Shown: piece after piece, positions 1 through 6,724 of the stretch | How positions within the stretch are numbered: the first letter of the stretch is position 1 | How the letters are laid out: the number at the start of each line of letters is the position of its first letter | DNA from: Methanobacteriota archaeon | GTDB lineage: Archaea; Thermoplasmatota; Poseidoniia; Poseidoniales; Poseidoniaceae | Direction of reading: 5' to 3' | Length of the DNA stretch: 6,774 nucleotides | Assembly: GCA_002701145.1 (NCBI GenBank) | Contig: PAEE01000022.1 | Coordinates: 9,517-16,290 of the forward strand | Program-made: the position numbers and the translations under genes | The notes under the pieces: model-generated | The model's database searches: none | Told to the model about the DNA's origin: nothing | The model's input: only the letters and a program-made list of their open reading frames with translations

Positions 1-704
1 GAACGATTTGCATTTCGATTAACCTCGATTGCAGTTGGGTCGAAACGACTTGAGTGGCAAATGCAGAACATCTTACTTCCTCCATCATCAGCACCACCAG
101 GTGTCCAATTATCGTCAGTAAAAGAATTGGAAACTAGTTGCCACCCTGGTATGCAACACAGGTGTGTACATCGAGCGAAACTCATTACGAGATTGTTGTT
201 GGGGTCAAAGATTTCAGGATTGCCTAGCAAAAATTCAGTTGCATGGCCAACGTAATTCTTACCGATGTCATATCCTGCCATTTCTTGGAACCTAGGGGAA
301 TTGTCTGCGACTGGGCTGCCTGAGTTTTCAGCATGCGGGACATAATTTACAATTACCGGTAAACCATTCCAAACACCCTGTGCTCCAGACATTCCTATGT
401 TCGACTTAGCAGCTTCAGCCTCAAAATCGGACTTGGACATAGATTGCAAGTGTTTTGCTCCATACCATGCTTCATCCTCTCTCCCTTTGGCCCAGTAAAG
501 TACTGCGGAATCTCCTCCTCCTCCGGCAGCAGGTGGCATAAGAATCGAAGCAAAGCCTAGTGCTCCCAATGTAGCAGCTAATACTCCTCCTGCTGCGTTG
601 AATCCGTGTCTCATGAACTGTCTGCGATTTACAGACATGTTTCCATCTAGGAGGTCTGAATCGCCTTCGGGGCGAGGGGCAGGTCGTAATTTCATATCGT
701 CCAT
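1..704 (-). CDS. Rieske [2Fe-2S] protein with Tat signal anchor, partial (C-terminus off the left edge)
   Basis: I translated this by hand; 234 complete codons lie in the window. It is the iron-sulfur subunit of a cytochrome bc/b6f-like quinol oxidase, acting on the outer face of the cytoplasmic membrane. Residues 26-31 are NRRQFM, a twin-arginine motif, followed by a hydrophobic stretch at about 35-56 that should stay as a membrane anchor, then a glycine-rich hinge at 61-64 (GGGG). Cluster-binding box 1 is CTHLCC at 179-184 and box 2 is CICHSS at 214-219. By analogy with bovine Rieske, ligands are C179, H181, C214 and H217, with a disulfide C184-C216. Box 1 has Cys183 where Gly is usual, and Phe221 sits where high-potential Rieske proteins have Tyr. 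The spacer between boxes (about 29 residues) is long. I chose the ATG at 702-704 because GGTGAT lies 3 nt upstream; ATGs at 695 and 638 are alternatives. It is the third gene of a minus-strand operon, 4 bp after the previous stop. Confidence 0.93.
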   Translation of the reverse strand, partial: MDDMKLRPAPRPEGDSDLLDGNMSVNRRQFMRHGFNAAGGVLAATLGALGFASILMPPAAGGGGDSAVLYWAKGREDEAWYGAKHLQSMSKSDFEAEAAKSNIGMSGAQGVWNGLPVIVNYVPHAENSGSPVADNSPRFQEMAGYDIGKNYVGHATEFLLGNPEIFDPNNNLVMSFARCTHLCCIPGWQLVSNSFTDDNWTPGGADDGGSKMFCICHSSRFDPTAIEVNRNANR

Positions 705-707
705 AAA

Positions 708-713
708 ATCACC
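708..713 (-). promoter_or_regulatory. Shine-Dalgarno site of the Rieske gene, overlapping the previous stop
   Basis: On the minus strand the sequence reads GGTGAT, then TTT, then ATG. GGTGAT matches the core of the archaeal 16S anti-Shine-Dalgarno complement. The TGA stop of the preceding gene (709-711) lies inside this site, which suggests translational coupling and decides the Rieske start at 704. Confidence 0.6.
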
Positions 714-1161
714 AATTATACTCTCTCCAGTCTTTCTGATGCTCAGGTACGTACTTGTTTTGGCTGTGCTTCACAATTATTGTGTTTGGAAGTACCCACT
801 TCAAGTAAACTATTCCCATCATGATAAGAGTTGAAAGCCCCATTGCTGAGTGGTATGCTAGTTGTTGTTGGTCCCACGCTGAACCATTTAGTAATCCATA
901 AAGCATGGTGCCAAACCAAAATATGGTCCAAAATATTCCCCAGCCAAAGAAAAACACCGTTAGGGCGGAAGATCCAGATGGTGCTAATGATGCGGAAATT
1001 ATTGTTCCTGGTTCGGCAGGGTTAAACACGCCGTGATTGATTGCAGCATCCATCTCTTCTTCGGTTAGCGACGCATCTTCAAGTGCTAACCTTGCATCTT
1101 TGACGCTTACTTTGCCAGACGCAACTTTCTCAAGAAGTTGTGTGATAGTATCTTTAGGCAT
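709..1161 (-). CDS. Small two-helix membrane protein of the Rieske operon, function unknown
   Basis: The product has 150 residues. I do not recognise a named family. Residues about 5-45 form a soluble, helical, charged N-terminus with a repeated look (TQLLEKVASGKVSVKDARLA, then an acidic SLTEEEMD helix), resembling short helical regulatory or docking segments. Two membrane helices follow, at about 66-90 (rich in Phe and Trp) and about 103-124, and the tail is polar (ends WREYNW). It lies between a CxCH secreted/anchored protein and a Rieske protein, overlapping the former by 1 bp and preceding the latter by 4 bp, so an accessory subunit or assembly factor of a bc-type complex is a fair inference. 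The ATG at 1159-1161 is preferred over the adjacent GTG at 1164, since GAGGTGA stands 6 nt before the ATG. No cysteine is present, so it is unlikely to carry an iron-sulfur cluster or covalent heme. Confidence 0.85.
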   Translation of the reverse strand: MPKDTITQLLEKVASGKVSVKDARLALEDASLTEEEMDAAINHGVFNPAEPGTIISASLAPSGSSALTVFFFGWGIFWTIFWFGTMLYGLLNGSAWDQQQLAYHSAMGLSTLIMMGIVYLKWVLPNTIIVKHSQNKYVPEHQKDWREYNW

Positions 1162-1949
1162 CACTGGTCACCTCTTCTGTTCATCTTGTAGCGAAGGCGA
1201 AGTAGGTTACTTCGTCCTTCATAGGAGGTGGAGAATCCGTACCTTAGCAGCAATCCACAGAAAATGACCACAGCAATTACTGCGCCGAATCCTAGTAGGC
1301 CGAGGACGTGTGCTCTGAATCCAGCACCCATTGTTGAGATGTCGATAGCTCCTGAATCTGCTTCTGGTGCTTCAGGTGTTCCGCTTCCAGCGATCAATGT
1401 TCGAGTTCCTTTGCCATCATCCTCTGCCGATTCAACAAGGTTGAACACTAATTGATTCCAATAATCTCCTGCTGGGCCGTCGGCTCCATTGACTGCGTTA
1501 CCGCTTATCCAGAAATCGATATGTCCTGCTCCAGCGGCAGGGGATGTCCAAGTGATTTCAAAAACCCGAGTTGCTGATGAAACATGAGTTCGAGTCATAG
1601 TATCGTCCTCCCATGCTTGTCCATCTCCAGAAATCTCACCCGCACTTACTCGTGCTGCGAATCCTCCCATATCGGTAGCTGGGCCTCCTACAATTTCCAA
1701 TCTCATGTTGTAAACTTGTTCTGGAGCCCAACTGTGCGGTACGTCTACAAGTAAAATCATCACGGAATTGCTAGGCAACTCACCGTGACATAGGCATCCC
1801 TCTTTGGCGACATCGTCTATCGTTTCTCCAGCATTACTTTGCTCTCCACCGATGCCTTCAGGGTATGCTTCACTAATGCCGGGTAAAAGCATCAAAGACA
1901 CAAGGATTAGGGGTAGCAAAGTTCGGATGAAAACCCGTGACATGCCCAT
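1161..1949 (-). CDS. Exported, membrane-anchored Reeler/choice-of-anchor-V-like protein with CxCH motif
   Basis: The product has 262 residues from the ATG at 1949. A Sec signal peptide covers about 1-28 (hydrophobic LLPLILVSLMLL, cleavage after SEA). The mature N-terminus has GCLCHG (C52, C54, H55). A beta-sandwich-like region at about 60-172 carries MGGFAARV, FEITWTSPA, GHIDFWISGNAVNG and GDYWNQLVFNL, a pattern I associate with the Reeler/choice-of-anchor V domain, which often follows a CxxCH-like motif. A linker rich in Gly, Ala and Glu leads to one membrane helix at about 214-236 and a basic cytoplasmic tail (RLRYKMNRR), so the domain faces outward. First gene of the operon with the Rieske protein, it could be a redox partner or a structural subunit of that complex. 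Heme binding is uncertain because the motif is one residue shorter than CxxCH. AGGGAT lies 5 nt before this ATG; TTG at 1955 and ATG at 1943 are alternatives. Confidence 0.85.
   Translation of the reverse strand: MGMSRVFIRTLLPLILVSLMLLPGISEAYPEGIGGEQSNAGETIDDVAKEGCLCHGELPSNSVMILLVDVPHSWAPEQVYNMRLEIVGGPATDMGGFAARVSAGEISGDGQAWEDDTMTRTHVSSATRVFEITWTSPAAGAGHIDFWISGNAVNGADGPAGDYWNQLVFNLVESAEDDGKGTRTLIAGSGTPEAPEADSGAIDISTMGAGFRAHVLGLLGFGAVIAVVIFCGLLLRYGFSTSYEGRSNLLRLRYKMNRRGDQ
1168..1174 (-). promoter_or_regulatory. Strong Shine-Dalgarno site before the two-helix membrane protein
   Basis: The minus strand reads GAGGTGA, a near-complete archaeal Shine-Dalgarno sequence, 6 nt before the ATG at 1161 and only 3 nt before the GTG at 1164. 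The spacing favours the ATG, which shares its A with the TGA stop of the upstream gene (TGATG). The site lies inside the end of the upstream coding region. Confidence 0.65.
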
Positions 1950-2103
1950 AGCCAATCCCTACCGATTTATGCGACTGGTATTGTGCCTATAATCGTTCGT
2001 ACCCTATCGTAGATAGGGGGCTTTGCAGTGTTACAATTTGTCCAGTTTTTATGACCATCCGAATAATGGCAAAACATATGCCAAATAACATCGAGCGTGA
2101 GCC
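1950..2103. promoter_or_regulatory. Divergent promoter region between the Rieske operon and the TPR/FtsZ-like operon
   Basis: This 154-bp gap lies between two divergent starts, so it should hold both promoters. For the minus-strand operon, TATA-like elements are ATTATAGG (1986-1993) and CATAAA (1966-1971). For the plus-strand operon, candidates are TTTTTATG (2046-2053) and AAACATATG (2072-2080). None is a strong canonical archaeal box, and I cannot choose between them from sequence alone. The CATAAA box lies about 25 bp from the ATG at 1943, which would fit a leaderless transcript if that start were used. Confidence 0.4.
2002..2018. repeat. Perfect 7-bp inverted repeat, possible operator
   Basis: The sequence is CCCTATC, a 3-nt spacer GTA, then GATAGGG. 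The two arms are perfectly complementary. It sits near the middle of the divergent intergenic region, where a dimeric regulator could act on both operons. As a transcribed hairpin its 3-nt loop is tight, and no T-run follows, so a terminator is unlikely. Confidence 0.5.
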
Positions 2104-2409
2104 ATGTCCGACCACGCTTTCGAGAATACTTATGACCTCTCGGATGACCAACTTACAAAATTAGATGAGGCGGAAGAAAAGATGCTAAGGAATAATCTTG
2201 GTCGAGCAGAAGAAATCCTTCTTGAGATGTTGGAGGATGATGATGAATGCATTCCTGTATTGAATAACCTCGCACACCTTTACGGAAGACATTTTTCCGA
2301 TTTTGAAAAGGCTGTAGAATTGTATGACAAGGTTTTGTCCTTGGAGCCAGACAATGCTTGGGCGAGGGATGCTCGCCGTCGTTACATGCGATATGTAGGA
2401 AGAGATTGA
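2104..2409 (+). CDS. Small acidic TPR-repeat protein
   Basis: The product has 101 residues, is acidic, and has no signal peptide or membrane segment, so it is cytoplasmic. A degenerate first helical pair covers about 13-46 (DEAEEKMLRNNLGRAEEILL), and a clear TPR unit covers about 49-82, with PVLNNLAHLYG in helix A, FEKAVELYDKVLSL in helix B and the terminal EPDN. A basic final helix (about 84-97, ARDARRRYMRY) caps the array. TPR domains bind partner proteins, and this one is short enough to be an adaptor. The next gene on the same strand, an FtsZ-like GTPase, begins 10 or 25 bp after its stop, so the two are probably co-transcribed and the GTPase is the first candidate partner. The ATG at 2104 is the only sensible start; GTGAG lies just upstream. 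I do not recognise it as a named gene. Confidence 0.88.
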   Translation: MSDHAFENTYDLSDDQLTKLDEAEEKMLRNNLGRAEEILLEMLEDDDECIPVLNNLAHLYGRHFSDFEKAVELYDKVLSLEPDNAWARDARRRYMRYVGRD

Positions 2410-2434: not shown

Positions 2435-3364
2435 ATGGATGGTGCGCAGATACTCATTGCAGGTATCGGCGGTCTTGGTGGTTCCTGGGCTCAGAGAGCA
2501 CATTCCAAAACAGGTCATGATATTGATTTGGTTTTGATCGATGCCGATGAAACTACATTCAATGCACCTGATGCCCACGTCATTCGACTTGGTAGAGATT
2601 TAGATTCAGCAGGATGTGCTGCTTTACCGCCACTTGGTGAACAGAGAATGCGACAAGCTTCAGATGTTTCAAGAACATTACTTGACGGTGTAGAATTGGT
2701 GATTCTCCTTACCGGTTTGGGTGGAGGTACAGGGACAGGGGCAGCCCCTGAATTTGCTAGGCAAGCACGTTTGTCTGGGGCGATTGTGATATCTATTGCA
2801 GCTATACCTTTCGAGGCTCAGGAAACTAGAGTGAAAGTTTCTAAAGAGGGTTTATCTAAACTCGAAGCTAATTCCGATGTATGTGTTCGACTAGACCTCG
2901 ATAGACTTGCATGGCAAGCCCGTGAAAGGGGAATCGATTGGAGGTTAGGGGCATCCTGGGTTGAAGAATTCGTCGATGGACTTGTGCGTACATTGATGCG
3001 ACTTGGATTAATCAACCTCGATTTAATGGATTTGAAAACTATTGTAGGCCATTCTGGAGGTTCAACACTGATGGTTGGTCAAGGCGACCCCGAAGATGCA
3101 AACTCATTATTGGAGGACGCACTAAGCGCCCCTCTTGCAAATCTTTCATTGGATGGAGCAAAGGCTTGTTTGCTACAGATTGAGGGTGGCCCCGGAATGA
3201 CCGTTGGACAAGTCGGCTTAATTGCAGATGCATTTACTGCAAGGTTTGATGACAATGCGCAAGTCATCCTTGGCGCTAGAGTAAGCGATGACTTACACGG
3301 TCAAATCAGAGTCGTTGCAGTTGTTGCAGGTTTAGACGAAACTACTGGGTTAAGCCTTGTTTAG
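2435..3364 (+). CDS. Divergent FtsZ/tubulin-superfamily GTPase
   Basis: The product has 309 residues from the ATG at 2435, chosen because AAGGGA lies 5 nt upstream and the FtsZ-like beta strand begins directly; ATG at 2420 would add five residues. T1 loop GIGGLGG is at 10-16 and the tubulin signature GGGTGTGAAP at 96-105. PFEAQETR at 125-132 matches the FtsZ PFxFEGxxR segment. The T7 loop NLDLMD at 194-199 keeps the Asn and both Asp residues that activate GTP hydrolysis in the next subunit. The C-terminal domain is recognisable (GGSTLMVGQG, IEGGPGM, VILGARVSDDLHG, IRVVAVVAGL). The T3 region (about 56-70, DSAGCAALPPLGEQ) lacks the usual AGxxP pattern, and the protein ends with the globular domain, with no C-terminal linker or membrane-protein-binding tail. 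Polymerisation into GTP-dependent filaments is likely from the family. It looks like a paralogue rather than the main division FtsZ. It follows a TPR gene and overlaps the convergent gene by 4 bp. Confidence 0.9.
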   Translation: MDGAQILIAGIGGLGGSWAQRAHSKTGHDIDLVLIDADETTFNAPDAHVIRLGRDLDSAGCAALPPLGEQRMRQASDVSRTLLDGVELVILLTGLGGGTGTGAAPEFARQARLSGAIVISIAAIPFEAQETRVKVSKEGLSKLEANSDVCVRLDLDRLAWQARERGIDWRLGASWVEEFVDGLVRTLMRLGLINLDLMDLKTIVGHSGGSTLMVGQGDPEDANSLLEDALSAPLANLSLDGAKACLLQIEGGPGMTVGQVGLIADAFTARFDDNAQVILGARVSDDLHGQIRVVAVVAGLDETTGLSLV

Positions 3365-4632
3365 TCGACCAATTCAATTTCATCTGAAACAGTTTCTTTA
3401 CTCTCAATAACTTCTTCATTGTCATCAGGCTCGATTGTCTCTTCAGGTTCCTCATCTTGGTTTTCCTCTTCTGAATCATCATCCTCTTCTGAATCTAAAT
3501 TAGATTCGATAGTAATATTACTTGCAGTTTCGAATATGCCAGATGTTATTCTGCTTGCTCGCAATGTAGGCCTCAATAGCAACATCATTGCACATATTGA
3601 CAAGACGTGACCAAAAATCATTACCTCCTTCAAACTGTCAAATGTCCCCGTCAACATTGCTACAGATCCAGCGTATGCGTAACCAAATGAAATTCCAAGT
3701 GGTAATGAGGCATCCTCGGAAATCAATCTTTTACCATCTCTAACTGTATAGGTAGTAAGTGACCATACTGCGAAAATTACGGTGAATGCCATCAACAAAC
3801 CTTCTTCGATTAATGTTGAAACTTCACTAGGGTTCATTTGTGCTCTTCGGTAAATACTGAATGCGTGCCATGTAATGAATAATTGAGCAACAATCATCCA
3901 CTTGAATGAAAACCCAGCAAGGCCCTTTTCATTTCCTGCTGCTTCTCTCTCATCGCGAGTTAACCACATCGTTATCGCTTGCAATATTACGGTTATAGCA
4001 AGGAATGCAATGCCTCCGAAAAGCGCATCTTGGAAATTCTTTTGCTCAGCATCGGTCGCCATTTGACCAATCCATATGATGATAAATGCAAATGCCTGTA
4101 CAATTACAAATTGAGATGCAGTTGAGGCCTTTTCCCTGTAGGTGTGTAATTTTGCATCACCTAAACCATTAGCCAACCATTCGACCATTCCCGTTCTGAA
4201 AGATGCCGCTTGTGCTATTGACCAGACTATGAATAATGATGCTAGCATAGGTGATATCCATGGGTTGCTTTGTCCACCCAATATGCTCCACATCAAGCCG
4301 ACTAATGTTGCTGCAAGAAGTATTGGTACTATTGTTATTCGAAAACTAAACAAAAGTCGTACAAACCAGCTAGATTCACTCTTATCAACAGGCAATTTAG
4401 TCAAACTCTGAATCATTTCCTTGTTTGATAGGGCTGCGATTAGGGTGTATGATATTGACAATGAAATGAAAGCCATTGCGACAAATACTTCTTGTGTATT
4501 GACTAAGAATAACAGGATTGTAGAAATCAAAGCGATCATTATGATGTGCGGAAGTGTTCTTGGTGACAACATATTACGAATTAATTGCAAAATTCCAATC
4601 TGTTCAAATTGGGTCTCAATTTCTTCAGACAT
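3361..4632 (-). CDS. Ten-helix membrane protein with acidic C-terminal tail, function unknown
   Basis: The product has 423 residues and I do not recognise the family. A short N-terminal cytoplasmic segment (1-27) precedes about ten hydrophobic segments: 28-45, 49-69, 91-117, 126-145, 174-191, 203-224, 242-261, 276-297, 311-330 and 335-354. There is no signal peptide. Residues 377-423 form a strongly acidic, low-complexity tail made mostly of Glu and Asp, with almost no basic residues. An even helix count puts both termini on the same side, cytoplasmic by the positive-inside pattern of loops such as KLHTYREK and YRRAQ. No transporter signature, nucleotide-binding motif or metal site was seen, so transport or membrane scaffolding is only a guess. 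It is a single-gene unit, convergent with the FtsZ-like gene (4-bp overlap) and divergent from the RNase P gene. The ATG at 4632 is preceded by GGCGAG at 5-nt spacing. Confidence 0.85.
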   Translation of the reverse strand: MSEEIETQFEQIGILQLIRNMLSPRTLPHIIMIALISTILLFLVNTQEVFVAMAFISLSISYTLIAALSNKEMIQSLTKLPVDKSESSWFVRLLFSFRITIVPILLAATLVGLMWSILGGQSNPWISPMLASLFIVWSIAQAASFRTGMVEWLANGLGDAKLHTYREKASTASQFVIVQAFAFIIIWIGQMATDAEQKNFQDALFGGIAFLAITVILQAITMWLTRDEREAAGNEKGLAGFSFKWMIVAQLFITWHAFSIYRRAQMNPSEVSTLIEEGLLMAFTVIFAVWSLTTYTVRDGKRLISEDASLPLGISFGYAYAGSVAMLTGTFDSLKEVMIFGHVLSICAMMLLLRPTLRASRITSGIFETASNITIESNLDSEEDDDSEEENQDEEPEETIEPDDNEEVIESKETVSDEIELVD

Positions 4633-5006: not shown

Positions 5007-5474
5007 ATGGGAGCGGGCGGAGAAGCACCACCTGTGAGGGGTGAGGACGTGATGATTCTCATCGGTTCATCGATTATTCTGCTCATGTTCATCATTCAAA
5101 CCTGGGTCGTTCCAACCGTCATAAATGAGGATTCAGATTCTCAATTTGAAGTAAAATATGACCTCGCAAAGGATGATTTGTTTTCCTTAGAAGTGATTGA
5201 AGGTGAAGTTACACCAACTGTGACGTCGCCTTCTGGTGAAGTAGATACTTTTAGCAACGTAGATTCGAAGTGGGAATATACTGCCAAAGAGTCAGGTGTT
5301 CACACTTTCAAATTCTACTCAATAGATGAATCAGTAATCGAGTATTCTGTGAGCAGGGGCTTAGTGTATGATTATGCATTATATCCTATAGGCGTGGTAA
5401 TCTTATTATTTGGAATTGTCAAGAAAATCTCATTACGAGAAGATGAACCAATTGAGGCAGTATTGGAAGATTAA
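5007..5474 (+). CDS. Small membrane protein: helix, beta-rich external domain, helix
   Basis: The product has 155 residues from the ATG at 5007. One membrane helix lies at about 16-37 (MILIGSSIILLMFII...). Residues about 46-116 form an alternating, beta-rich domain with TVTSPSGEVDTF, SKWEYTAKESGVHTFKFYS and EYSVSRG, a pattern like GOLD/emp24-type or other small beta-sandwich extracellular domains (W-x-Y-T-A...G-V-H-T-F). A second helix covers about 122-140, and the tail is acidic. The beta domain lies between the helices, so it probably faces outward with both termini inside. The start is uncertain: ATG at 5052 has a better Shine-Dalgarno match (GGTGAG, 6 nt upstream) and would begin at the first helix, giving 140 residues; ATG at 4941 would overlap the previous gene. 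The gene probably shares a transcript with the Pop5-like gene, without obvious functional link, and its stop overlaps the convergent gene by 4 bp. No named family is recognised. Confidence 0.82.
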   Translation: MGAGGEAPPVRGEDVMILIGSSIILLMFIIQTWVVPTVINEDSDSQFEVKYDLAKDDLFSLEVIEGEVTPTVTSPSGEVDTFSNVDSKWEYTAKESGVHTFKFYSIDESVIEYSVSRGLVYDYALYPIGVVILLFGIVKKISLREDEPIEAVLED

Positions 5475-6724
5475 ACCCAAGTGATGTATTCTCCATCATC
5501 AATTGCCTCTCCACCTAATAGTAATTCACCGCGCTCATTCAGGTCAAAATCACTGTAGATGGTTCCATTATATCTTGGAAGGCCTAGAGATTTCATTTTT
5601 CCAAGAACTTGATTTCTTATTTCCTCGTGCCTTACAGGGGGTAAGTCCTCTCTGAATTCTAACAAAGATGCCAGTTCACAGTGTAATCTACGATCAAACT
5701 CCTCAAATTCTATTTCATATATTTCGTCCAAGAATGCCATCTCGAACTCTGAATCATGAATTGCTGTTTTCAAGTTCATTCCTATTCCCAATACTACTCG
5801 CATTCCTTGCTGGATATTTCTTCCCTCTGCCAATATTCCGCATAATTTTTTACCGTCGATTAGAATGTCATTTGGCCACTTCAAAGTCAGCTGTTCCAAT
5901 CCAAGTGAATTAAGGACGGCCAAACCTCCTGATAATTGTAGGTGTCCTGGGTTTATGTCAACACCTTCAGCAACTATCCAAGAGCCAGCATAGCACCCTT
6001 CTATAGAGGTCCATTGCCGTTGCCTCCTGCCCCTTCCTGATGTTTGCAGCCCTGTCGAGATGTGCGTTCCAATGCCGCTTTTCAAAAGTAGATCTTCATT
6101 GGTCGAGCCGGTTTTTTCAACATACTTATTTTCGGCTCCCTCATAGGGAATCCAGAAACATCTCAAAGCTAAATGTTCTCCATCTTCAAACTCTAACTCA
6201 TCCCAGGTGCGATATGCAAAAGAATGTCCATTGTTGGTAGACTCTTTCCTTCCTAAAACTAGAATTCTTCCTAAGGGTGAAAGTAGTTGATTACTTACTA
6301 TACTTTGAAGCAATCTATTGCCTAATCCTAGTTTGTCTGTGTCGATTAGAGCCGCCTCTTCCATCGGCCCTAAAACCTGCTCGATATCTTTGGGGTCGAT
6401 ATACGGTAGATTCCAAATTATCAGATCGAATTTCTCATTGAATGGAAAAGGCTCTGGTCCGACCCCTCCCTCTCTAATATCTCCATTGAATCCGTTGGCT
6501 GACATATTTCCCGCTGTGGCGGCTACGGCGAAGGGGGTAACGTCACAACCGCTAACCTTCCATCCCATGTAATTTGCAAGAATTGAAAGTGCTCCAGAAC
6601 CAGTCCCTACCTCTAGGAATTTACGCCCTCTACCCGGGCCTAATGATATAATCCTACGAGCCAATAAATCTGTATCTTCCCTGGGGGGGTAGACTGTAGG
6701 GGGTATAATAAGTGTGAATTTCAT
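5471..6724 (-). CDS. Fusion: HemK2-like methyltransferase with biotin-protein ligase
   Basis: The product has 417 residues in two domains. Residues 1-190 are a class I SAM-dependent methyltransferase: VYPPREDTDLLA (11-22) is the HemK/PrmC-family lead-in, FLEVGTGSGALSI (37-49) is motif I, D61 is the probable ribose-binding acid, and NLPY (105-108) stands where HemK enzymes have NPPY. Archaeal/eukaryal HemK2 methylates the GGQ glutamine of release factor 1, so that is a plausible target. Residues about 195-417 are a biotin-protein ligase without a DNA-binding domain: TGSTNEDLL (205-213), QTSGRGRRQRQW (227-238), KWPNDILIDGKKLCGILAE (282-300) with Lys293 equivalent to BirA Lys183, and VVLGIGMNL (310-318), then a small C-terminal domain. 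It should attach biotin to the carrier protein of acyl-CoA carboxylases. The reading frame stays open upstream to the window edge, so an earlier start cannot be excluded; AGAGGG precedes this ATG closely. Both halves look intact. Confidence 0.9.
   Translation of the reverse strand: MKFTLIIPPTVYPPREDTDLLARRIISLGPGRGRKFLEVGTGSGALSILANYMGWKVSGCDVTPFAVAATAGNMSANGFNGDIREGGVGPEPFPFNEKFDLIIWNLPYIDPKDIEQVLGPMEEAALIDTDKLGLGNRLLQSIVSNQLLSPLGRILVLGRKESTNNGHSFAYRTWDELEFEDGEHLALRCFWIPYEGAENKYVEKTGSTNEDLLLKSGIGTHISTGLQTSGRGRRQRQWTSIEGCYAGSWIVAEGVDINPGHLQLSGGLAVLNSLGLEQLTLKWPNDILIDGKKLCGILAEGRNIQQGMRVVLGIGMNLKTAIHDSEFEMAFLDEIYEIEFEEFDRRLHCELASLLEFREDLPPVRHEEIRNQVLGKMKSLGLPRYNGTIYSDFDLNERGELLLGGEAIDDGEYITWV

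What the first reader, a model, noticed from the sequence alone, without database searches (positions are those of the whole stretch)
2435..3364. FtsZ-like GTPase with an intact T7 loop but no canonical T3 loop and no C-terminal tail
The protein keeps the tubulin signature GGGTGTG and the catalytic T7 residues N194, D196 and D199, so it probably polymerises and hydrolyses GTP. The T3 region, which senses the gamma phosphate in FtsZ through an AGxxP segment, is replaced by an unrelated stretch (about 56-70). It lacks the C-terminal linker and peptide that tether FtsZ to the membrane. This does not look like standard archaeal FtsZ1, FtsZ2 or CetZ and may be a distinct family with a different role or different assembly dynamics.
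Basis: partly seen in the sequence, partly recalled or inferred. Interest (0 to 1): 0.7.

Follow-up and report, generated by a model that had tools for sequence, protein, structure and literature searches.

The report
Tail-less third FtsZ of marine archaea
Marine archaea of the order Poseidoniales carry, beside their two ordinary FtsZ cell-division proteins, a third shortened FtsZ whose nucleotide pocket is rewritten while its catalytic loop is intact, encoded right behind a small TPR-like protein in every locus examined; it is predicted to be an accessory, slow-turnover part of the division filament.

Summary
Window 2435-3364 encodes a 309-residue FtsZ with an intact T7 loop (N194, D196, D199), an altered T3 loop and no C-terminal tail. 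The T3 loop is not an unrelated insert: it aligns without gaps (GAGGNP in M. jannaschii FtsZ1, GCAALP here). Residues recalled to hold guanine are replaced across the family: N165 to L/M (134 of 135), F182 to W (135 of 135), D186 to A/S (132 of 135); N43 becomes D (133 of 133). R142, D45 and the T4 glycines stay. It is a third FtsZ paralog of Poseidoniales: strong matches in 246 of 271 genomes, none in 21 of the sister family. It occurs beside FtsZ1 and FtsZ2, also on the single-contig MG-II chromosome. It forms one clade (100/100) on a very long stem; a sister relation to Poseidoniales FtsZ1 is rejected, to FtsZ2 not. A 101-residue TPR-like gene lies just upstream on the same strand in 132 of 132 distinct loci with room. 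Best reading: an accessory FtsZ, likely assembling head to tail with slow hydrolysis, docked through the TPR protein instead of a tail. Its function is untested.

The parts
2435..3364 (+). third FtsZ paralog (working name FtsZ3), 309 aa plus stop; an in-frame ATG at 2420 exists but the family starts at 2435
2104..2409 (+). 101-aa TPR-like protein, upstream neighbour of FtsZ3
   Evidence: TPR matches just below Pfam cut-offs; same strand, directly upstream in 132 of 132 distinct loci with room, gap 7-117 nt, median 37
1956..2103 (.). intergenic stretch between the divergent gene at 1161-1955 and the TPR-FtsZ3 pair; presumed promoter region (inferred, not tested)
   Evidence: gene layout; sequence printed
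2462..2485 (+). T1 loop, residues 10-17 (GIGGLGGS): glycines kept, N24 equivalent replaced
2540..2548 (+). T2 D36-A37-D38 in place of N-T-D (E. coli N43-D45); D38 kept
2612..2629 (+). T3 loop, residues 60-65 (GCAALP) in place of GAGGNP
2720..2740 (+). T4 tubulin signature GGGTGTG, residues 96-102
2828..2830 (+). R132, equivalent of E. coli R142 (S. aureus R143), kept in 135 of 135
2897..2899 (+). L155 in place of the T6 asparagine (E. coli N165)
2939..2953 (+). W169 in place of F182 and A173 in place of D186 at the start of H7
3014..3031 (+). T7 catalytic loop NLDLMD, residues 194-199
3332..3361 (+). last 10 residues: no linker, no SepF-type C-terminal peptide

Best explanation
This is a conserved third FtsZ paralog of Poseidoniales, lacking the C-terminal tail and with a rewritten nucleotide pocket, that likely works as an accessory subunit of the FtsZ1/FtsZ2 division filament. 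Shown here: third paralog across the order, intact T7 triad plus D45 and R142, replaced base-side residues, no tail, and a fixed TPR-FtsZ3 gene pair. Inferred: its T7 face would cap the nucleotide of the subunit below and support hydrolysis there; its own pocket, with Q47, the A-G of T3 and the recalled guanine contacts changed, would bind nucleotide loosely or turn it over slowly, so that it would stabilise or pace the filament; and the co-encoded TPR protein would act as its docking handle in place of the missing SepF-binding tail.
For: T7 N/D/D kept in 135 of 135 distinct FtsZ3, R142 in 135 of 135, D45 in 132 of 133. These are five of the six residues that Ruiz et al. 2022 tested at the SaFtsZ interface (PMC8936486, section 11 read in full). 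The sixth, Q48 (E. coli Q47), is Q in 1 of 128 FtsZ3 with a residue there; the Q48A mutant still assembles, hydrolyses GTP about 6-fold more slowly and makes stabilised filaments. Replaced: N43 to D 133 of 133, G71 to A 131 of 133, N165 to L/M/A 135 of 135, F182 to W 135 of 135, D186 to A/S 132 of 135. No tail: 1-10 residues after the core in 56 of 56 FtsZ3, against 27-40 in 15 of 15 canonical Poseidoniales FtsZ. FtsZ1, FtsZ2 and FtsZ3 are all on the single-contig genome G036, the same length as record CM001443.1. TPR gene upstream on the same strand in 132 of 132 distinct loci with room. Of 25 genomes without a strong FtsZ3 match, 7 have the TPR gene, each 0-478 nt from a contig end on the FtsZ3 side, and 4 of these 7 hold an N-terminal FtsZ3 fragment cut by that end; the other 18 have neither gene. 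Purifying selection.
Against: Nothing here shows contact with FtsZ1, FtsZ2 or the TPR protein. In G036 the gene lies about 0.5 Mb or more from ftsZ1 and ftsZ2; its distance to sepF was not measured. The pocket keeps the phosphate loop and R142, which fits self-assembly as well as mixed assembly. A test for unequal retention of pocket and T7/H8 columns was not significant (Fisher p 0.27, only 4 T7/H8 columns). T3 (56-59) and T7 (191-195) are among the worst-modelled segments (pLDDT under 50), so no loop geometry can be claimed. The roles of N165, F182 and D186 in guanine contact are recalled, supported only by a docking paper, and the H7 alignment has a nearby gap (column 181).
Confidence: 0.42

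Rival explanations
1. FtsZ3 forms its own filament, separate from the division ring, perhaps for cell shape or for positioning something through the TPR protein.
For: Both faces keep catalytic parts: T7 below, and the T4 glycines, D45 and R142 above, as a homopolymer would need. It has its own gene partner and a long independent stem. Archaeal CetZ is a precedent for an FtsZ relative outside division (CetZ1 and rod shape, seen in the start of abstracts in the listing).
Against: No tail in 56 of 56 and at most 3 residues before the core in 52 of 56 (two of these cut by contig ends), so no membrane attachment of its own in sight; Q47 and the recalled guanine contacts are lost.
Confidence: 0.3
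2. FtsZ3 no longer polymerises; it is a soluble regulator that caps or titrates the division FtsZs through its intact T7 face.
For: T3, T6 and H7 nucleotide-side residues are replaced in essentially all members while T7 is unchanged.
Against: The T4 glycines (133 of 133), D45 (132 of 133) and R142 (135 of 135) would not be expected to stay so fixed in a dead pocket (inference).
Confidence: 0.18
3. It is the ordinary division FtsZ of this lineage, merely diverged.
For: Pfam and NCBIfam place it nearest FtsZ; one source names some relatives 'cell division protein FtsZ'.
Against: An FtsZ1 with a C-terminal tail is in the same genome, and FtsZ1 and FtsZ2 with tails are in relatives, including the single-contig G036.
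Confidence: 0.03

Closest known systems
Archaeal FtsZ2
   Same: FtsZ fold and FtsZ_C domain; T6 of FtsZ2 type (LDNNRL) resembles LDLDRL here; T7 NLDxxD; a sister relation is not rejected (p-AU 0.25 and 0.30).
   Different: The FtsZ2 rows keep AG in T3, N165, F182 and D186 and have a C-terminal tail; in Odinarchaeota that tail is what SepF binds (PMC12583498, abstract and passages). FtsZ3 has none of these.
Archaeal FtsZ1
   Same: Fold, T4, R142, T7.
   Different: FtsZ1 has the canonical pocket and, in the Poseidoniales rows, a tail ending in EFVN or similar; a sister relation of Poseidoniales FtsZ1 and FtsZ3 is rejected (p-AU 0.024).
Extra FtsZs of other Thermoplasmatota (L209, L211:5477-6535, L213:373-1383, L218:423-1484)
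   Same: Additional FtsZ in genomes that also hold a canonical one, ending differently from the usual DFIK/DFVR-type tail (by eye); one side of a branch with FtsZ3 in the tree, support only 69/89.
   Different: They keep NTD, G71, N165 and the H7 Asp; the TPR partner was not found in G364, the source of L211.
CetZ and non-canonical archaeal tubulin-superfamily proteins
   Same: Further groups beside FtsZ1 and FtsZ2 in many archaea, the non-canonical ones patchily spread (PMC9856176, passages).
   Different: FtsZ3 matches the FtsZ_C domain and FtsZ structures; a direct tree with CetZ was not made, and the cited paper's non-canonical sequences were not compared.
FtsZl1/FtsZl2 of Makarova and Koonin 2010 (PMC2875224, passages)
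   Same: Divergent FtsZ relatives of unknown role. The same paper already notes numerous archaeal FtsZ paralogs, some lacking known motifs.
   Different: The S6-T7 region of FtsZl1 does not fit the known structure and its C-terminal domain is unlike FtsZ; FtsZ3 keeps the whole FtsZ core and has no PF13809 match.

Membership tests
FtsZ/tubulin superfamily | tubulin signature GGGTGTG and GTPase domain (PF00091) | tested here: met
   60.6 bits against cut-off 33; GGGTGTG at 96-102
FtsZ/tubulin superfamily | T7 catalytic NxDxxD | tested here: met
   135 of 135 distinct FtsZ3
FtsZ | FtsZ_C domain (PF12327) | tested here: met
   62.7 bits against cut-off 27
canonical FtsZ (NCBIfam TIGR00065 equivalog) | score over the curated cut-off | tested here: not met
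   155.9 against 295.2 bits
canonical FtsZ | T3 loop AGxxP | tested here: not met
   A70 is C in 92 of 133, G71 is A in 131 of 133; Pro74 kept in 128 of 133
canonical FtsZ | base-side residues N165, F182, D186 (role recalled; partly) | tested here: not met
   L/M/A, W, A/S/G/P in 135 of 135
canonical FtsZ | C-terminal linker and conserved peptide | tested here: not met
   1-10 residues after the core in 56 of 56
archaeal FtsZ1 | branches inside or beside FtsZ1 | tested here: not met
   separate clade 100/100; sister to the six Poseidoniales FtsZ1 rows rejected, p-AU 0.024; other FtsZ1 groupings were not tested
archaeal FtsZ2 | branches beside FtsZ2 | tested here: inconclusive
   not recovered, not rejected, p-AU 0.25 and 0.30; long stem 3.06
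CetZ | branches with CetZ | not tested
   no CetZ row was fetched; only indirect evidence
FtsZl1/FtsZl2 (Tubulin_2) | PF13809 match | tested here: not met
   not among matches with E up to 0.1
GTP-dependent filament | polymerises and hydrolyses GTP | not testable with these tools
   needs purified protein

The most novel reading that the evidence does not exclude
FtsZ3 is a tubulin-superfamily filament protein that has abandoned guanine recognition: under strong purifying selection its base-binding residues were swapped for Leu/Met, Trp and Ala/Ser while the phosphate loop, R142, D45 and the T7 triad stayed fixed, so it runs on another nucleotide or holds one permanently, and a dedicated TPR protein replaces the C-terminal tail as the link to the division machinery of a major group of planktonic marine archaea.
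Probability: 0.25. Interest if true: 0.85.

Novelty: new variant of a known kind. Interest (0 to 1): 0.6.

Why it matters
Poseidoniales are widespread, little-cultured planktonic archaea (recalled), and the searches made here found no paper on how they divide (listings). A third FtsZ that keeps its catalytic loop but not its recalled base-reading residues is a natural test of which parts of the FtsZ pocket are needed for assembly, for hydrolysis and for nucleotide choice. The fixed TPR partner would point to a new way of linking an FtsZ to the rest of the cell without a C-terminal tail. Both claims can be tested with two small proteins.

Tried and rejected
Ordinary division FtsZ: rejected, since FtsZ1 is in the same genome and FtsZ1 plus FtsZ2 in relatives. 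Pseudogene or assembly error: rejected, since an unbroken frame scoring over 280 bits with the FtsZ3 profile is in 188 fetched loci (135 distinct proteins; many loci are repeats of one genome and a few are cut by contig ends) and pN is far below pS. Mobile or viral origin: no PHROG match; one scan of viral contigs gave a single 23%-identity relative, L274; the gene sits in a conserved neighbourhood. Pure nucleotide-free cap: downgraded because the T4 glycines, D45 and R142 are about as fixed as T7. A statistical contrast of pocket against T7/H8 retention was not significant (Fisher p 0.27) and is not used as support. Neither FtsZ3 nor the TPR gene was found in 18 genomes, among them five of the ten genus-g12 genomes in the table (G100, G105, G208, G217, G271); whether this is loss or incomplete assembly was not settled. 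For 10 of the 18 the neighbour gene p1161 was searched and gave only weak matches (best E 3e-20). Literature: searches gave no paper describing a third FtsZ of Poseidoniales; I saw listings, and passages of PMC8178401, PMC9871819, PMC8187382, PMC9258230, PMC12583498, PMC2875224, PMC9856176 and PMC10020519, one section of PMC8936486, and no supplements. The library lacks most subscription journals, so this is not proof of novelty; that archaea hold further FtsZ-like families in general is in print (passages). Searches for a source of the guanine contacts gave none or a short list from which one docking paper was read in passages.

Rows dropped: partial loci L225, L239 and L243 before the tree; long-branch rows L230, L231 and L237 before the residue counts (55 canonical rows kept). 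Representative FtsZ3 rows were chosen under 75% identity, without X and over 295 aa; L020 and L058 were added by hand.

Full report

It is a third FtsZ. The same genome has an FtsZ1-type protein (350-377 residues by start choice, ending in IEFVN) on contig C83. Of 61 genomes searched with this protein, all 61 have some FtsZ match and 40 have exactly three (fragments count as matches). G036 is a single contig of 2,064,136 bases, the length of the named MG-II chromosome CM001443.1; it carries FtsZ3 at 965197-966114, an FtsZ1 at 364865-365779 and an FtsZ2 at 443931-444806 (types by alignment and, for FtsZ1, tree). FtsZ2 was not found in G000 itself, which is incomplete.

Who has it. A profile of 20 FtsZ3 (A1) was run on 292 genomes of the class. 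Counted by eye from that table at E below 1e-60, 246 of 271 genomes of families f1 and f2 have a strong match (one of them, G286 at 2.8e-64, is near the line). In family f3, 19 of 21 have best hits of 5.6e-45 to 4e-51, the level of canonical FtsZ, and 2 have none. Source names (Poseidoniaceae, Thalassarchaeaceae) fit f1 and f2 as the two Poseidoniales families; that f3 is an MGIII-type group is my inference. In 194 genomes of the phylum the complete FtsZ3 hits score 308 bits or more, and the best hit outside the class scores 218 (E 1.6e-64). The 80 best of 291 loci in named genomes carry titles of Poseidoniales/Poseidoniaceae/Poseidonia or of unspecified Euryarchaeota; the other 211 were not seen. 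Of the 25 genomes without a strong match, 7 hold the TPR gene, each time 0 to 478 nt from the contig end where FtsZ3 would follow. In 4 of these 7 an N-terminal FtsZ3 fragment runs into that end (G170, G232, G242, G191); the other 3 leave at most 81 nt. The one genome listed at 90% completeness or more without a match, G039, is one of those 3. The remaining 18 have neither gene; half of the genus-g12 genomes (5 of 10) are among them, so loss in part of one genus is possible.

What is changed. In E. coli numbering (135 distinct FtsZ3 against 55 canonical FtsZ; two FtsZ3 lack the N-terminal part), kept: T4 glycines 105, 106, 107, 109 and 111 (133 of 133), D45 (132 of 133), R142 (135 of 135), T7 N207, D209 and D212 (135 of 135). 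Replaced: N43 to D (133 of 133), T44 to A/S/G (133 of 133), G71 to A (131 of 133), N165 to L (112), M (22) or A (1), F182 to W (135 of 135), D186 to A (91), S (41), G (2) or P (1). N24 is N in 2 of 132. Q47 is Q in 40 of 55 canonical rows and in 1 of 128 FtsZ3. Loop T5 is one residue shorter in 20 of 21 tree rows. The core is followed by 1-10 residues in 56 of 56 FtsZ3, against 27-40 in 15 canonical Poseidoniales FtsZ. Before the core, 52 of 56 FtsZ3 have at most 3 residues (two of them cut by contig ends), 4 have 17-33 (start choice uncertain), and the canonical ones have 1-56.

What the changes mean. Ruiz et al. 2022 (PMC8936486; section 11 read in full) tested D46, Q48, R143, N208, D210 and D213 of S. 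aureus FtsZ. Five of the six are fixed here. The sixth, Q48, gave as Q48A polymers that still form but are stabilised, with GTPase about 6-fold lower. That N166, F183 and D187 (S. aureus numbering) hold the guanine is recalled; a docking study of S. epidermidis FtsZ lists N166, R143 and F183 for GTP, and D187 for another ligand (PMC10020519, passages). So FtsZ3 keeps the parts for phosphate, metal and catalysis and has lost the parts recalled for the base. A formal contrast of pocket and T7/H8 columns was not significant (p 0.27). Loop geometry cannot be read from the model: residues 56-59 and 191-195 are under pLDDT 50.

Descent. In a 79-row maximum-likelihood tree FtsZ3 is one clade (21 rows, 100/100) on a stem of 3.06 changes per column. 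Grouping with Poseidoniales FtsZ1 is rejected (p-AU 0.024); grouping with Poseidoniales FtsZ2 (0.25) or with all 16 FtsZ2 rows (0.30) is not. Four extra FtsZs of other Thermoplasmatota, which end differently from the usual tail but keep the canonical pocket, fall next to it with weak support (69/89). Its T6 (LDLDRL) resembles the FtsZ2 form (LDNNRL) more than the FtsZ1 form (IPNDKL). Origin from an FtsZ2 is my inference; with so long a stem, its place is unsure.

The gene pair. Directly upstream, on the same strand, lies a 101-residue TPR-like protein (2104-2409). It is there in 132 of 132 distinct FtsZ3 loci with room for it (135 distinct; three lacked room), with 7-117 nt between the genes, median 37 (start codons chosen by rule). 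The most diverged FtsZ3 (L058) has it too. 23 of its 101 positions are invariant in 14 rows. It was not found in the six f3 genomes or the four other Thermoplasmatota genomes searched. Co-transcription is inferred from spacing.

Division context. Poseidoniales have weak SepF matches (4 of 41 genomes, one over the Pfam cut-off) in open frames of 150-179 residues that resemble each other by eye, so a SepF-type anchor is likely present but diverged. In Odinarchaeota the FtsZ2 tail binds SepF and FtsZ1 uses a terminal amphipathic helix (PMC12583498, abstract and passages). FtsZ3 has no tail, and no N-terminal extension in 52 of 56 members.

Verdict. The best reading is an accessory FtsZ that likely assembles head to tail with the division FtsZs, turns over slowly and is docked by the TPR protein. 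A separate FtsZ3 filament is nearly as likely. The family is not described in the papers found, within the limits of an open-licence library. I rate it a new variant of a known kind.

Noticed in passing
window 5471-6724 (-): One ORF joins an N-terminal HemK/PrmC-like methyltransferase and a C-terminal biotin-protein ligase domain; homologs were found in 118 of 188 fetched FtsZ3 loci.
   Followed up: partly
window 1161-1955 (-); L001:2500-3099: A predicted secreted protein with a CLCHG motif lies divergent to the TPR-FtsZ3 pair; a diverged paralog abuts ftsZ1 in 5 of 5 MGIIa-type FtsZ1 loci looked at (L001, L059, L062, L064, L068) and was not found in 3 of 3 MGIIb-type (L066, L070, L072).
   Followed up: partly
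L249-L252: Diverged SepF-like proteins in open frames of 150-179 aa in Poseidoniales; only one of four is over the Pfam cut-off.
   Followed up: partly
L209, L211:5477-6535, L212, L213:373-1383, L218:423-1484: Extra FtsZs of other Thermoplasmatota that end differently from the usual tail but keep the canonical pocket.
   Followed up: partly
L235, L236, L238: Second FtsZs of family f3 (same class) sit on a long stem (1.76) and have S in place of the H7 Asp.
   Followed up: no
L057, L058: Genome G052 has two near-identical FtsZ3 genes on two contigs; they are the most diverged members seen, with NQGIMP at T3.
   Followed up: no
window 3361-4632 (-): A 423-aa protein with about 7 hydrophobic segments, convergent with FtsZ3, without Pfam match; homologs were found in 139 of 188 FtsZ3 loci.
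   Followed up: no
L274:3001-3876: A viral contig encodes a 23%-identical FtsZ/tubulin relative.
   Followed up: no
window 3-704 and 709-1164 (-): Two genes without Pfam match, the first with CTHLCC and CICH motifs that suggest a Rieske-type protein (name recalled); part of the conserved upstream neighbourhood.
   Followed up: no
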